From: Candidatus Bathyarchaeota archaeon
Lineage (GTDB): Archaea; Thermoproteota; Bathyarchaeia; Bathyarchaeales; Bathycorpusculaceae
NCBI GenBank assembly: GCA_003589585.1
Contig: QYYE01000008.1
Location: 1 to 32,359, forward strand
Direction of reading: 5' to 3'
DNA length: 32,359 nt
In this document: piece by piece, positions 5,801 through 18,119 of the stretch
Layout: each line of letters begins with the position of its first letter
Numbering within the stretch: position 1 is the stretch's first letter
Translations under genes and position numbers: made by a program
The notes under the pieces: generated by a model
Seen by the model: only the letters and a program-made list of their open reading frames with translations
Databases searched by the model: none
What the model was told of the DNA's origin: nothing

Positions 5801-5832
5801 TTGTTTGGTAGCGGGGAGTAGATTTGAACTAC
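5801..5832 (-). repeat. Direct repeat copy of the initiator tRNA 3' end (tRNA-proximal copy)
   Basis: The partner of the repeat at 4920-4951, identical at 30 of 32 positions. It covers the 3' end of the intact tRNA from the T-arm through CCA and five bases beyond. It marks the tRNA side of the segment carrying vapBC. Confidence 0.8.
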
Positions 5833-5906
5833 TGATCTCTGGGTGTCTCACAGCCGATTTGGCGGTTATGAGCCCAGCGGGTTAATCCTGGCTACCCCAC
5901 CCCGCT
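5806..5906 (-). tRNA. Initiator tRNA-Met (CAU) with a 22-nt intron
   Basis: The minus strand folds as a tRNA. The acceptor stem is AGCGGGG/CCCCGCT with an A1:U72 pair; the D-stem is GGGT/ACCC, the anticodon stem CTGGG/CCCAG, and the T-stem AGTAG/CTACT with loop TTCAAAT. A discriminator A and an encoded CCA (5806-5808) follow. The anticodon CAT is at 5868-5870. The A1:U72 pair and three G:C pairs at the base of the anticodon stem mark it as initiator rather than elongator. The anticodon stem closes only if 5845-5866 is removed, leaving the 7-base loop CTCATAA. A T/A-rich element near 5920-5930 may be its promoter. Confidence 0.92.
5845..5866 (-). other. tRNA intron at position 37/38
   Basis: Twenty-two bases interrupt the anticodon loop at the canonical archaeal site. 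A 4-bp helix CTCA/TGAG is flanked by the 3-base bulges TAA and ACA. Cutting each bulge after its second base leaves the loop CTCATA+A. This is the bulge-helix-bulge signal of the archaeal splicing endonuclease. The inner helix of the intron is weak (three G:C pairs). Confidence 0.85.
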
Positions 5907-14859: not shown

Positions 14860-15663
14860 ATGACGCTTGCTAAACGCATCGTTCCCTGCCTCGATGTTGA
14901 CCATGGAAAAGTAGTTAAATGCATAAACTTTCTCAATCCGAAGCAGGCAGGCGACCCTGTTGAAATGGCTCAGCGGTACTCTGATGATGGCGCTGACGAG
15001 CTGGTTTTCCTAGACATCACCGCTTCCCATGAAAAACGCGACATTATGCGCAAGTACGTGGAAGGCGTCGCTAAAGCCATAAACATTCCTTTCACTGTCG
15101 GCGGAGGAATCCGTAACGTGTTGGATGCACGGCTGGTCTTGTGCAGCGGAGCTGATAAAGTGTCAGTTAACACTGCGGCGGTCGAAAAACCCAAATTAAT
15201 CACCGAGCTAGCTGACGTTTTTGGGCGACAATGCGTTGTTACAGCAATCGACGCCAAACGCAACCGCACACCCAGAGATGGCAAAATCATGGTTGACACG
15301 GCAGAGGGCAAGGTATGGTTTGAAGTTGTCACTTATGGAGGCAGAAAACCCACAGGTTTTGACGCCATTGCTTGGGCGCTTGAGGCGGAGCGGCTTGGGG
15401 CAGGTGAGTTCTTGGTAACTTCCATGGATAGGGATGGTACAAAAGACGGCTATGACATTGAACTAACCCGAGCCATCTCAGAACGCGTTAACGTTCCAGT
15501 GATTGCAAGTGGCGGCGCAGGCATCCCAAAACACCTCCTCGACGTGTTCACCGAGGGCAAGGCGGACGCGGCACTGGCAGCTTCCATTTTCCACTATAAC
15601 CAGTACCCTGTGCCTGTTGTAAAGGATTACTTGCGAAAGATGGGGGTGACTATTAGACCATGA
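14860..15663 (+). CDS. hisF: Imidazole glycerol phosphate synthase, cyclase subunit
   Basis: HisF uses HisH-derived ammonia to convert PRFAR to imidazole glycerol phosphate and AICAR. The TIM barrel starts [17 protein letters not shown] with catalytic Asp12 and continues [43 protein letters not shown] and [13 protein letters not shown], all standard HisF landmarks. At 267 residues it is slightly longer than average because of an insert near residues 135-150. It overlaps hisI by ATGA. Confidence 0.98.
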
Positions 15664-15989
15664 CCGAAGACTTGCTTAAGAAATTGGATTTTAAGAAGGG
15701 CAACGGGCTTATCCCCGTCATAGTCCAAGACGCAGATACAAAAGAAATCCTGATGCAGGCATACGCCAACAAAGAAGCAGTCGAACACACGCTGAAAACT
15801 AGGAAAGCCACCTACTGGAGCCGCAGCCGAAATGAACTGTGGGTTAAAGGCGAAACCTCAGGGCACACCCAAAAAATCGTCTCCGTCTCAGCCGACTGCG
15901 ACTACGACTCCCTATTGTACGTGGTTGAGCAGACTGGTCCAGCATGCCACGCAGGTCAATATAGCTGCTTCCACAACACAATACTCTAA
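15660..15989 (+). CDS. hisI: Phosphoribosyl-AMP cyclohydrolase
   Basis: HisI opens the adenine ring of phosphoribosyl-AMP, a zinc- and magnesium-dependent step. The 109-residue protein is monofunctional: it carries [17 protein letters not shown], the magnesium-binding DCDYD and the zinc cysteines in [21 protein letters not shown]. There is no HisE (phosphoribosyl-ATP pyrophosphatase) domain fused to it, and none elsewhere in the operon. It is the last gene of the operon; its stop codon lies within a palindromic terminator. Confidence 0.97.
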
Positions 15990-16003
15990 AAAAGCTTTTT
16001 TAG
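15986..16003. terminator. Bidirectional palindromic terminator
   Basis: CTAAAAAAGCTTTTTTAG is an 18-bp perfect palindrome. It contains the TAA stop of hisI on the plus strand and the TAA stop of the converging RHH gene on the minus strand, and it gives a run of six T's in both directions. T-runs are sufficient terminators in archaea, so this probably ends both transcripts. Confidence 0.7.
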
Positions 16004-16227
16004 CGTAAAGCAAATTTTTCTCTAAATTCTTTACTTGATTCCCGAATTGCTTCTATGTCCTCTTTAGAGAGAAGGCGTCTGAGTTCATCGAACGCTTCTT
16101 TACCTTTGAGCTGTTGCGAGTCGCTATATTTTTCTAATAGAAAGTCGCCCCATGTTTTGTTGCCCTTGATTATTTGCAGACGCTTCTTTACTTCAACGGG
16201 AACGCGGATTGTGGTATATTTTCGCAA
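16000..16227 (-). CDS. Orphan RHH antitoxin-like protein
   Basis: A 75-residue protein starting YTTIRVPVEVKKRLQIIKG, then a helix with KTWGDFLLEKY. This is the ribbon-helix-helix form common in archaeal VapB-type antitoxins. The C-terminal half (LRRLLSKEDIEAIRESSKEF) is the charged helix that would bind a toxin. No PIN or RelE toxin gene lies next to it: downstream is the 3' end of hisI, and upstream is mntA on the other strand. It starts at a TTG with no clear ribosome-binding site. It may be an orphan regulator or the survivor of a lost toxin-antitoxin pair. Confidence 0.65.
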   Translation of the reverse strand: MRKYTTIRVPVEVKKRLQIIKGNKTWGDFLLEKYSDSQQLKGKEAFDELRRLLSKEDIEAIRESSKEFREKFALR

Positions 16228-16335
16228 TTTAACATGCCTAGCAAAGAATCTATTGACTTATTGCTAAAATGTTTTGTCCAATTTACCTGTTGCATCCAAA
16301 AAAGCTTATGTCTTAATAACACGTAATCACTAACC

Positions 16336-16665
16336 ATGGAAATCCAGATCGAAAAGCTACCTGAACCATTAAGAACAAGCGGTTTAGAGAAAAAACTAGT
16401 TGCAATCTGTAGAAAAAATGATGTAATTTTTTTAGCAGTATTCGGTTCTTTTGTTAGAGGCGAACAGCACAGAGGAAGCGATGTTGATATTGCTATCGAA
16501 TTCGACCCAAACAAGGATAAAAGCCTCTTAGAACTAATTCACCTAGAACATGAACTGAGCAAAGTGTTCAAACGTAAAGTTGATCTTGGAATTTTCAGCA
16601 GTATTCACCCGTATGTCATTGATAACGTGAAAAAAGAGATGCTTATCATCTATGAGAGACAATAG
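16336..16665 (+). CDS. mntA: MNT-type nucleotidyltransferase antitoxin (MntA)
   Basis: Minimal nucleotidyltransferase of 109 residues. The catalytic signature GSFVRGEQHRGSDVDIAIEF places Gly37-Ser38 and the metal-binding Asp49 and Asp51; the third acid is Asp83 in KVDLGIF. In type VII toxin-antitoxin pairs MntA neutralises the HEPN toxin by adding AMP to its tyrosine. The next frame is exactly such a HEPN gene, overlapping this one by 14 bp. The MntA frame is intact, while its partner is interrupted. Confidence 0.9.
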   Translation: MEIQIEKLPEPLRTSGLEKKLVAICRKNDVIFLAVFGSFVRGEQHRGSDVDIAIEFDPNKDKSLLELIHLEHELSKVFKRKVDLGIFSSIHPYVIDNVKKEMLIIYERQ

Positions 16666-16990
16666 CACATATTTGAAACATATCTTAGACACAATTTTTG
16701 ATATTGAGCAATTCATGCAAGGGCTGTGAAAAGAGGATTTTTTTAGAAACAGAGAAAAGCAATATGCTGTCTTACGTGGATTGGAGATAATTGGTGAAGC
16801 AACAAAGAACTTAAGCCGCGAACTAAAGAAAGGATGCTCCGAAGTAAATTGGAGAGACATTGCTGGAATGCGCGATAAACTCATCCACGAATATTTCGGT
16901 GTCAATTTGCCGGTAGTCTGGAAAACCGTTAAAGAGGATCTGCCCAACCTAAAGAAACAAGTGCAAAAGTTGCTAACGAGTTCTGAATAA
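16652..16990 (+). pseudogene. hepT: HEPN toxin HepT (DUF86) with in-frame TGA
   Basis: One continuous frame from the ATG at 16652 encodes 112 residues of a HepT toxin, but codon 26 is TGA (16727-16729): FMQGL-stop-KEDFFRNREKQYAVLRGLEIIGEA. There is no frameshift and the rest of the family is well preserved, including the ribonuclease motif R-x4-H-x-Y at Arg74-His79-Tyr81 (RDKLIHEYF). The TGA stands where relatives usually have a small polar residue (from general knowledge of the family). A downstream TTG at 16781 would yield only the C-terminal part. Probably an inactivated toxin; recoding is possible but TGA ends other genes here. Confidence 0.85.
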
Positions 16991-17063
16991 GTATGAGAGC
17001 AAGCTCTTGTAGTTAATGCTTTTAAACAAAAAACCTTTCTATTTCTTGTGAGGGTTGAAGGAA

Positions 17064-18119
17064 ATGTCGTTACATGAAGCTATGCTCTATGAGAAACAAA
17101 AAGACAACAAAGTAAAATGCTGCTTATGCGCAAGGCGCTGCCTCATAAGCGACGGTTCACAAGGTTTCTGCTTGGTCAGGCAAAACAACGGTGGCACGCT
17201 TTACACATTAAATTATGGTAAAGCTGTCTCTGCAGGCGTTGACCCAATCAGCAAAAAGCCTCTTTCACACTTTAACCCAGGCTCGTTGGTGATGTCGGTT
17301 GCGGCTGCGGGCTGCAATTTCCGCTGCCAATTCTGCGACAATTGGATGATAAGCCAAGACCGCGAAGTTGCCGGCAAACCTTTTCCGCCTGAAGAAATTG
17401 TCAAGTCAGCCAAGGACAGCATGTGCCAGGGAATCAGCTACACCTACACTGAACCCACCATCTTCATGGAGTACGCTTACGAAACAGCCAAACTCGCCCA
17501 TAAAGAGGGGTTGTTTAACACGTTTGTCACCAACGGCTACATGACCCCTGAAGCCGTAAAAGCAATTGCGCCCTATCTGGATGCGGCAACAGTTGATTTC
17601 AAAGGCGGCGGCGACCCGGGCTTTTACAAGACGGTTTCAGCTGTGCCAAACGTTAAAGCCATTTACGAGGCGCTAAAAGAGCTTAAGCTAAACGGCGTGC
17701 ATATTGAGATTACTAATTTGATTGTTCCAAAAATAGGCGACTCCATGGAAAAAATAAAGACGATGGCTGTGTGGATTAAGAACTACTTAGGTGAGGACAC
17801 GCCGTTTCACCTGCTCCGTTTTCATCCAGACTATAAAATGACTACGCTGCCAGCCACAAGCGTTGAAGCCTTGGAAACGGCTTACATGACCGCTAAAAAT
17901 GAGGGCTTAAACTATGTTTACGTGGGAAACGTGCCTGGTCACCCAGCGGAGAACACTTACTGCCCAAACTGCAACGAAACCATAATCAAACGATACAGCT
18001 TCGACATCACCCTTTGGAACCTGACAAACGACATGCGATGCCCCGTCTGCGGACAACAAATCCCAATAAAAGGCAAAGTGTACCAGTCGAGCCTGCGTTT
18101 TCCTTACGCCCTGTTCTAG
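17064..18119 (+). CDS. amrS: AmmeMemoRadiSam-type radical SAM protein
   Basis: Radical SAM enzyme of the AmrS family, which occurs together with AMMECR1 and MEMO1-like proteins in many archaea and bacteria; its substrate is not established. The SAM-cluster cysteines are Cys84, Cys88 and Cys91 in AAGCNFRCQFCDNW. The N-terminus has the family's extra cysteine block KCCLCARRCLISDGSQGFC, and TYTEPTIFMEY and VTNGYMTPEA follow. The C-terminus carries two CPxC pairs (CPNC and CPVC) that may bind zinc or a second cluster. I chose the ATG at 17064, close behind GAGGGTTGAAGG; a TTG at 17055 is in frame. No AMMECR1 or MEMO1 gene is in the window. Confidence 0.9.
   Translation: MSLHEAMLYEKQKDNKVKCCLCARRCLISDGSQGFCLVRQNNGGTLYTLNYGKAVSAGVDPISKKPLSHFNPGSLVMSVAAAGCNFRCQFCDNWMISQDREVAGKPFPPEEIVKSAKDSMCQGISYTYTEPTIFMEYAYETAKLAHKEGLFNTFVTNGYMTPEAVKAIAPYLDAATVDFKGGGDPGFYKTVSAVPNVKAIYEALKELKLNGVHIEITNLIVPKIGDSMEKIKTMAVWIKNYLGEDTPFHLLRFHPDYKMTTLPATSVEALETAYMTAKNEGLNYVYVGNVPGHPAENTYCPNCNETIIKRYSFDITLWNLTNDMRCPVCGQQIPIKGKVYQSSLRFPYALF

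What the first reader, a model, noticed from the sequence alone, without database searches (positions are those of the whole stretch)
16652..16990. HepT toxin interrupted by one in-frame TGA next to an intact MntA
The HEPN frame is perfect on both sides of a TGA at codon 26, including the R-x4-H-x-Y ribonuclease motif. A single nonsense change, without any other decay, suggests a recent inactivation, a sequencing error, or stop-codon readthrough. In the last case a low level of full toxin would be made by readthrough, a plausible way to limit dose.
Basis: partly seen in the sequence, partly recalled or inferred. Interest (0 to 1): 0.55.

Follow-up and report, generated by a model that had tools for sequence, protein, structure and literature searches.

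The report
Recently broken HepT toxin gene
An archaeal toxin gene carries one premature stop beside its intact antidote gene, most likely an early stage of the ordinary way such toxin-antidote pairs wear out, with the toxin going first.

Summary
In detail: the HepT frame 16652-16990 holds a single TGA at 16727-16729 (codon 26), is otherwise a full HepT with R-x4-H-x-Y, and follows an intact MntA. Relatives explain it better than readthrough does. The pair sits at a fixed place, hisI-mntA-hepT-radical SAM gene. Of 21 same-genus genomes with that neighbourhood, 8 carry mntA there: 3 intact pairs, 3 with intact mntA and lost hepT (this TGA and two hepT deletions), 2 with both genes hit. Across 30 HepT loci of the genus, 6 have a broken HepT frame with an intact MntA and none shows the reverse; one of the 6 is a second single in-frame stop, TAA. 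None of 99 homologues has a stop at this position. UGA decoding finds no support: no tRNA-Sec or SepSecS in 32 genus genomes, no UCA anticodon among 36 tRNAs, TGA used as an ordinary stop. All 27 conserved columns are kept, so the loss, if real, is recent. An orphan VapB without VapC beside it repeats the pattern. Verdict: a fresh loss-of-function allele in a decaying type VII toxin-antitoxin locus; a consensus error is unlikely but not excluded without reads.

The parts
16336..16665 (+). mntA, intact minimal nucleotidyltransferase antitoxin (109 aa)
   Evidence: PF01909 69.3 bits, PF18765 64.8 bits; open frame
16444..16488 (+). GSX10DXD adenylyltransferase motif of MntA
   Evidence: read from the translation; motif defined in PMC7641770 (passages)
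16652..16990 (+). hepT frame, interrupted (112 codons plus stop)
   Evidence: PF01934 97.7 bits with X at the stop
16727..16729 (+). in-frame TGA at codon 26
   Evidence: relatives have sense codons, mostly Ser or Thr
16871..16894 (+). R-x4-H-x-Y catalytic and AMPylation motif, downstream of the stop
   Evidence: invariant R74, H79, Y81 in alignment A1
16000..16227 (-). orphan VapB-type antitoxin (75 aa), no VapC beside it
   Evidence: PF02697 30.1 bits, cut-off 27.9; G011 has VapB with a VapC PIN protein at its version of the site
15660..15989 (+). hisI (PRA-CH), left anchor of the site
   Evidence: PF01502 121.4 bits; same neighbour in relatives
17055..18119 (+). radical SAM gene, right anchor of the site
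   Evidence: PF04055 69 bits; 31 of 32 genus genomes have it

Best explanation
The window carries a chromosomal MntA-HepT (type VII) toxin-antitoxin pair whose toxin gene was recently knocked out by a nonsense change; translation ends after a 25-residue piece (first helix and loop), so no HEPN ribonuclease is made, while the antitoxin stays intact because losing the toxin first is the harmless order. The allele is an early stage of a repeated course of decay at this site: toxin broken, toxin gene deleted, then the antitoxin lost. Shown: the stop, the intact antitoxin, the shared site, and the series of lesions in relatives. Inferred: absence of active HepT, the order of steps, and the reason for the order.
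For: Single TGA in an otherwise full HepT. Same site hisI-mntA-hepT-radical SAM in relatives; of 8 genomes with mntA there, 3 pairs are intact (G011, G017, G020), 3 have intact mntA and lost hepT (G000 by TGA; G007 and G008 by deletion with scars), 2 have both genes hit (G010, G019). In 30 of the 31 distinct HepT loci of the genus search: 18 both open, 6 HepT broken with MntA open and GSX10DXD kept, 4 both affected, 2 HepT broken with no MntA seen, 0 with intact HepT and broken MntA. G011:C28 is a second intact MntA with a HepT holding one in-frame stop, TAA. 27 of 27 conserved HepT columns kept; under neutral drift with a fixed stop that and no further stop has probability 0.065 at 0.04 and 0.032 at 0.05 substitutions per site, so the event is recent. 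Codon 26 lies in the loop between helix 2-21 and helix 27-32 of the modelled relative. TA decay by nonsense and deletion is known in E. coli (PMC7167474, passages).
Against: No reads, no strain-level alleles and no expression data. The genome is one incomplete assembly (82.9% complete, 227 contigs). Some lesions in relatives could be assembly errors in homopolymers (both mntA frameshifts of G010 and G019 lie in the same T-run). The HepT of the window still looks constrained on its own branch (omega 0.029 after the stop, bg 0.049), which is expected for a recent event but would also fit an allele that is still used.
Confidence: 0.82

Rival explanations
1. The stop is an error of the assembled consensus (or a minority variant taken into it) and the living population makes normal HepT.
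For: One metagenome-type assembly, incomplete; all conserved columns intact; no reads held.
Against: 38 of 38 radical-SAM and 24 of 24 ABC-domain matches in the same genome have no internal stop. Broken HepTs are frequent in the genus and one-sided towards the toxin (6 against 0; one-sided sign test 1/64, my own arithmetic), which random errors in two genes of like length would not give. The lesion is a substitution-type change: no length change against relatives.
Confidence: 0.1
2. UGA is read through (by a near-cognate tRNA, selenocysteine or a suppressor), giving a low dose of toxin.
For: The frame beyond the stop is perfect. Selenocysteine coding has been described in some Bathyarchaeota (PMC9499178, passages), so it had to be tested; I did not establish the taxon of this genome.
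Against: The stop is not conserved: 0 of 99 homologues. tRNA-Sec over cut-off in 0 of 32 genus genomes and SepSecS in 0 of 32. None of 36 tRNA matches has anticodon UCA. TGA ends 7 of 26 main window ORFs. No Rfam match at gathering scores in the window and no SECIS-like match near hepT even at E 5. No unusual fold downstream of the stop (z -0.96). tRNA-Trp and tRNA-Cys were not seen among the 36, so a changed tRNA in the missing part of the genome is not excluded.
Confidence: 0.04
3. A shortened HepT is made by reinitiation downstream of the stop (TTG at 16781, or a GTG that overlaps the TGA and would need a frame change in the T7 run) and has a role of its own.
For: A 69-codon frame from TTG 16781 contains R-x4-H-x-Y; GTG overlaps the TGA and a T7 run follows.
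Against: The fragment lacks the first helices of the bundle. Neither start nor run is conserved with the stop in relatives. The GTG frame ends after a few codons unless it shifts.
Confidence: 0.04

Closest known systems
HepT/MntA (HEPN-MNT, type VII) toxin-antitoxin pairs, e.g. SO_3166/SO_3165 of Shewanella oneidensis
   Same: Gene order MNT then HEPN, overlapping frames, PF01909 with GSX10DXD and PF01934 with R-x4-H-x-Y (motifs from PMC7641770, passages); the modelled relative's best PDB matches are HepT/HEPN toxins.
   Different: The toxin frame of the window is interrupted at codon 26; as it stands the pair is antitoxin only.
Decaying chromosomal toxin-antitoxin systems (ccdO157 and others in E. 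coli)
   Same: Conserved chromosomal location, inactivation by nonsense changes and deletions (PMC7167474 and PMC2654758, passages; the ccdO157 paper itself not read).
   Different: Here in archaeal genomes, in a type VII pair, with several independent lesions at one site.
Orphan (solo) antitoxins
   Same: Intact MntA with no usable HepT, intact VapB with no VapC. Solo toxins and antitoxins make over 50% of genes in the largest families according to PMC2701414 (passages); anti-addiction is the role often proposed (PMC7354431, passages).
   Different: In the window the dead toxin gene is still there, so the step between pair and orphan is seen.

Membership tests
HepT/MntA type VII TA pair | HEPN toxin family PF01934 with R-x4-H-x-Y | tested here: met
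   97.7 bits with X at the stop; motif. Met by the frame, not by the product as translated.
HepT/MntA type VII TA pair | adjacent MNT antitoxin PF01909 with GSX10DXD | tested here: met
HepT/MntA type VII TA pair | uninterrupted toxin open frame | tested here: not met
   TGA at 16727-16729. It is therefore filed as a broken copy, not as a working pair.
HepT/MntA type VII TA pair | HepT fold | tested here: met
   Tested on the intact relative L034 (62% identical): model pLDDT 93.4, top 20 PDB matches are HepT/HEPN chains, TMq 0.63-0.74, though E-values are 0.02-0.16.
HepT/MntA type VII TA pair | MntA AMPylates and neutralises HepT | not testable with these tools
   biochemistry
Decaying TA locus | intact orthologous pair at the same site in relatives | tested here: met
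   G011, G017, G020
Decaying TA locus | independent inactivating lesions in relatives | tested here: met
   G007, G008, G010, G019 at the site, G084 in another genus
UGA recoding (selenoprotein or reassigned code) | decoding machinery (tRNA-Sec, SepSecS, UCA anticodon) | tested here: not met
UGA recoding (selenoprotein or reassigned code) | UGA conserved at the position | tested here: not met
   0 of 99 homologues

The most novel reading that the evidence does not exclude
The hisI-radical SAM site is being turned into an antitoxin-only island: after toxin loss the antitoxins MntA and VapB are kept by selection, as standing protection against incoming HepT and VapC or for a new target of MntA's AMP transfer. 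MntA on the two branches that end in hepT-deleted genomes has omega 0.22, well below 1 (LRT 18.3) though above the rest (0.094); the time of hepT loss on those branches is unknown.
Probability: 0.2. Interest if true: 0.5.

Novelty: new member of a known kind. Interest (0 to 1): 0.25.

Why it matters
It shows step by step, at one chromosomal site in related archaea, how a type VII toxin-antitoxin pair wears out: toxin broken, toxin deleted, antitoxin lingering, then both gone. The one-sidedness (no intact toxin with a broken antitoxin in 30 loci) suggests, without any experiment, that these archaeal HepTs are harmful when unguarded. If the orphan antitoxins proved to be kept by selection, that would make the anti-addiction idea testable in archaea.

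Tried and rejected
Selenocysteine: tRNA-Sec matches in the own genome were 14, all below cut-off (best 40.1 bits against 47); the best is a tRNA-Ser(TGA) gene. SepSecS absent in own genome and in 0 of 32 genus genomes; tRNA-Sec in 0 of 32 (at E 1e-9, and for most genomes only the best 94 candidates were scored).

Code change: rejected; TGA ends 7 of 26 main window ORFs and 62 of 62 radical-SAM and ABC matches have no internal stop.

Structured readthrough signal: Rfam at E 5 on 16300-17100 gave one match only, snoR64 at 16611-16683, 24.5 bits against a gathering score of 45, treated as chance; fold downstream of the stop z -0.96.

PDB by sequence: HepT with X gave no match at 1e-3, MntA gave 1wot. 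PADLOC gave PDC-S09 models for MntA and nothing for the HepT part.

Pairwise dN/dS was saturated for most MntA pairs, so a codon branch model was used. The HepT branch model has very long branches and says little. My first tally counted only the hisI site; widening it to all HepT loci and checking seven broken ones in three frames kept the pattern. One of 31 distinct HepT loci, G011:C41, had no locus and was not examined.

Literature: six searches; passages read in PMC7641770, PMC7354431, PMC2654758, PMC7167474, PMC2701414, PMC8211752 and PMC9499178; no paper read whole. I make no claim that this decay series is not in print.

Full report
Observation. The frame 16652-16990 (+) reads as a 112-residue HepT with one internal TGA at 16727-16729, codon 26. 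With X at the stop Pfam gives HepT-like PF01934 97.7 bits; the part behind the stop alone gives 86.5 bits. The upstream gene 16336-16665 is an intact MntA: PF01909 69.3 bits, PF18765 64.8 bits, GSX10DXD at 16444-16488, overlapping the HepT start by 14 nt. The window is one whole contig, C206, of a 2.08 Mb, 227-contig assembly, 82.9% complete. Two more HepT loci lie in that genome (C58, C78), both intact with their own MntA. Their MntAs are only 29-34% identical to the one here, so cross-neutralisation is doubtful.

Is the frame otherwise intact? In 99 homologues that cover at least 90 query residues, 27 columns are conserved at 80% or more; the window keeps 27 of 27, while 79 of the 99 have at least one mismatch. 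At codon 26 the homologues have mainly Thr (26) and Ser (21), then Asp, Gly, Glu and others, two gaps and no stop; of the ten nearest, nine have Ser or Thr. If a stop were fixed and the rest drifted neutrally, the chance of no further stop and 27 unchanged columns is 0.49 at 0.01, 0.12 at 0.03, 0.065 at 0.04 and 0.032 at 0.05 substitutions per site (substitutions only). So a real inactivation would be recent. In a model of the intact relative L034 (pLDDT 93.4) residue 26 is in the loop between helix 2-21 and helix 27-32; a product ending there has one helix of the bundle. That no active ribonuclease is made is an inference from this.

The site. mntA-hepT lies between hisI and a radical SAM gene. 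In the genus search, 31 of 32 genomes have the radical SAM gene. I looked at the upstream stretch in 31 (30 loci, and G008 by its mntA locus). In 21 of the 31 hisI lies just upstream (G011's hisI was seen in L188, G008's in L186), and in 8 of those 21 mntA is between them. Three pairs are intact: G011, G017, G020. Three have an intact mntA and no working hepT: the window; G007, where hepT is gone but for a scar; and G008, where only the first and last codons of hepT remain around an internal deletion. Two have both genes hit: G010 has a frameshifted mntA and an open hepT whose catalytic His is Asn; G019 has frameshifts in both. In another genus of the family, G084 has a nearly complete mntA (last residues changed by a frameshift) and a hepT with a large internal deletion, at a different place.

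All HepT loci of the genus. One search lists 33 rows, 31 distinct loci; 30 had loci and were read, G011:C41 was not. 18 have both frames open. 6 have a broken HepT frame with an open MntA that keeps GSX10DXD: G000:C206, G009:C123, G009:C27, G011:C28, G010:C5, G021:C1. 4 have both affected: G009:C49 (first Asp of DXD replaced), G019:C15, G019:C13, G010:C61. 2 have a broken HepT and no MntA seen: G029:C26, G008:C12. None has an intact HepT with a broken MntA. Seven of the broken ones were read in three frames; frameshifts or truncations were visible. G011:C28 is a second HepT with a single in-frame stop, TAA, beside an intact MntA. A one-sided sign test of 6 against 0 gives 1/64 (own arithmetic). 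The search started from HepT, so genomes with mntA alone are under-counted: G007:C134 and G008:C8 are not among the 30.

A second pair at the same place. 16000-16227 (-) codes a VapB-type antitoxin (PF02697, 30.1 bits, cut-off 27.9) with no VapC: hisI ends 11 bases away. G011 has the same VapB followed by a VapC with a PIN domain (44.1 bits) at its version of the site. G008 keeps an open VapB without VapC; in G009 and G010 vapB is itself decayed. So two unrelated pairs at this place have lost the toxin and kept the antitoxin in the window's genome.

Readthrough. Against it: no conservation of the stop (0 of 99); TAA in the parallel case; no tRNA-Sec over cut-off and no SepSecS in own genome or in 32 genus genomes; no UCA anticodon among the 36 tRNA matches (the Tyr gene at 5806 was read as ATA, probably through an intron); TGA as ordinary stop in 7 of 26 main ORFs; no SECIS-like or other Rfam match and no unusual fold. 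tRNA-Trp and tRNA-Cys were not seen, and 17% of the genome may be missing, so a suppressor is not strictly excluded. Sec coding exists in some Bathyarchaeota (PMC9499178, passages), which is why the genus-wide search was made.

Error. Reads are not held. Against error: 38 of 38 radical-SAM matches and 24 of 24 ABC matches in this genome have no internal stop, and lesions in the genus are one-sided. For error: nothing but the lack of reads. Some lesions in relatives may be errors: the two mntA frameshifts (G010, G019) lie in the same T-run.

Is the orphan antitoxin kept? A codon branch model of MntA (10 sequences) gives omega 0.107 overall; on the G007 and G008 branches 0.22, against 0.094 elsewhere; omega 1 there is rejected (LRT 18.3), and the branches differ weakly from the rest (2 delta lnL 4.4). 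This fits slow relaxation or partial retention. When hepT was lost on those branches is unknown, so it does not prove selection after the loss.

What is known. MntA adenylylates Tyr of R-x4-H-x-Y with GSX10DXD and so silences HepT, also in an archaeon (PMC7641770, passages). Decay of chromosomal TA systems by deletion and nonsense changes is described in E. coli (PMC7167474; PMC2654758), and solo antitoxins are very common (PMC2701414; PMC7354431). The finding is therefore a good example of a known course, in archaea and in type VII.

Verdict. Observation confirmed; recent loss of function 0.82, consensus error 0.10, readthrough 0.04, shortened product 0.04. Interest 0.25.

Noticed in passing
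window 16000-16227 (-): Intact VapB-type antitoxin without VapC, between hisI and mntA; a full VapBC is at G011's version of the site.
   Followed up: partly
L190 and L191 (G010:C61, G019:C15), mntA T-run before GSX10DXD: Two mntA frameshifts of different length in the same T-run; slippage hot spot or homopolymer assembly error. The window has in-frame T7 runs in both mntA and hepT.
   Followed up: no
L005 (G010:C61): Open HepT with the catalytic His replaced by Asn next to a frameshifted MntA: the toxin seems disarmed where the antitoxin is broken.
   Followed up: partly
L189 229-660 (G084, another genus): MntA with a HepT scar of about 36 codons left by a large internal deletion, at a site not next to the radical SAM gene.
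   Followed up: partly
window 15660-18119 against G007:C134: Radical SAM protein 89% identical but hisI only 76% and MntA 70%: the left side of the site seems to have a different history, perhaps recombination.
   Followed up: no
L186 (G008:C8): The radical SAM gene is itself interrupted in this genome: match pieces cover residues 4-55 and 107-354 only.
   Followed up: no
window 5806-5906 (-): tRNA-Tyr gene, 101 bases, probably with an intron; ARAGORN reads the anticodon as ATA.
   Followed up: no
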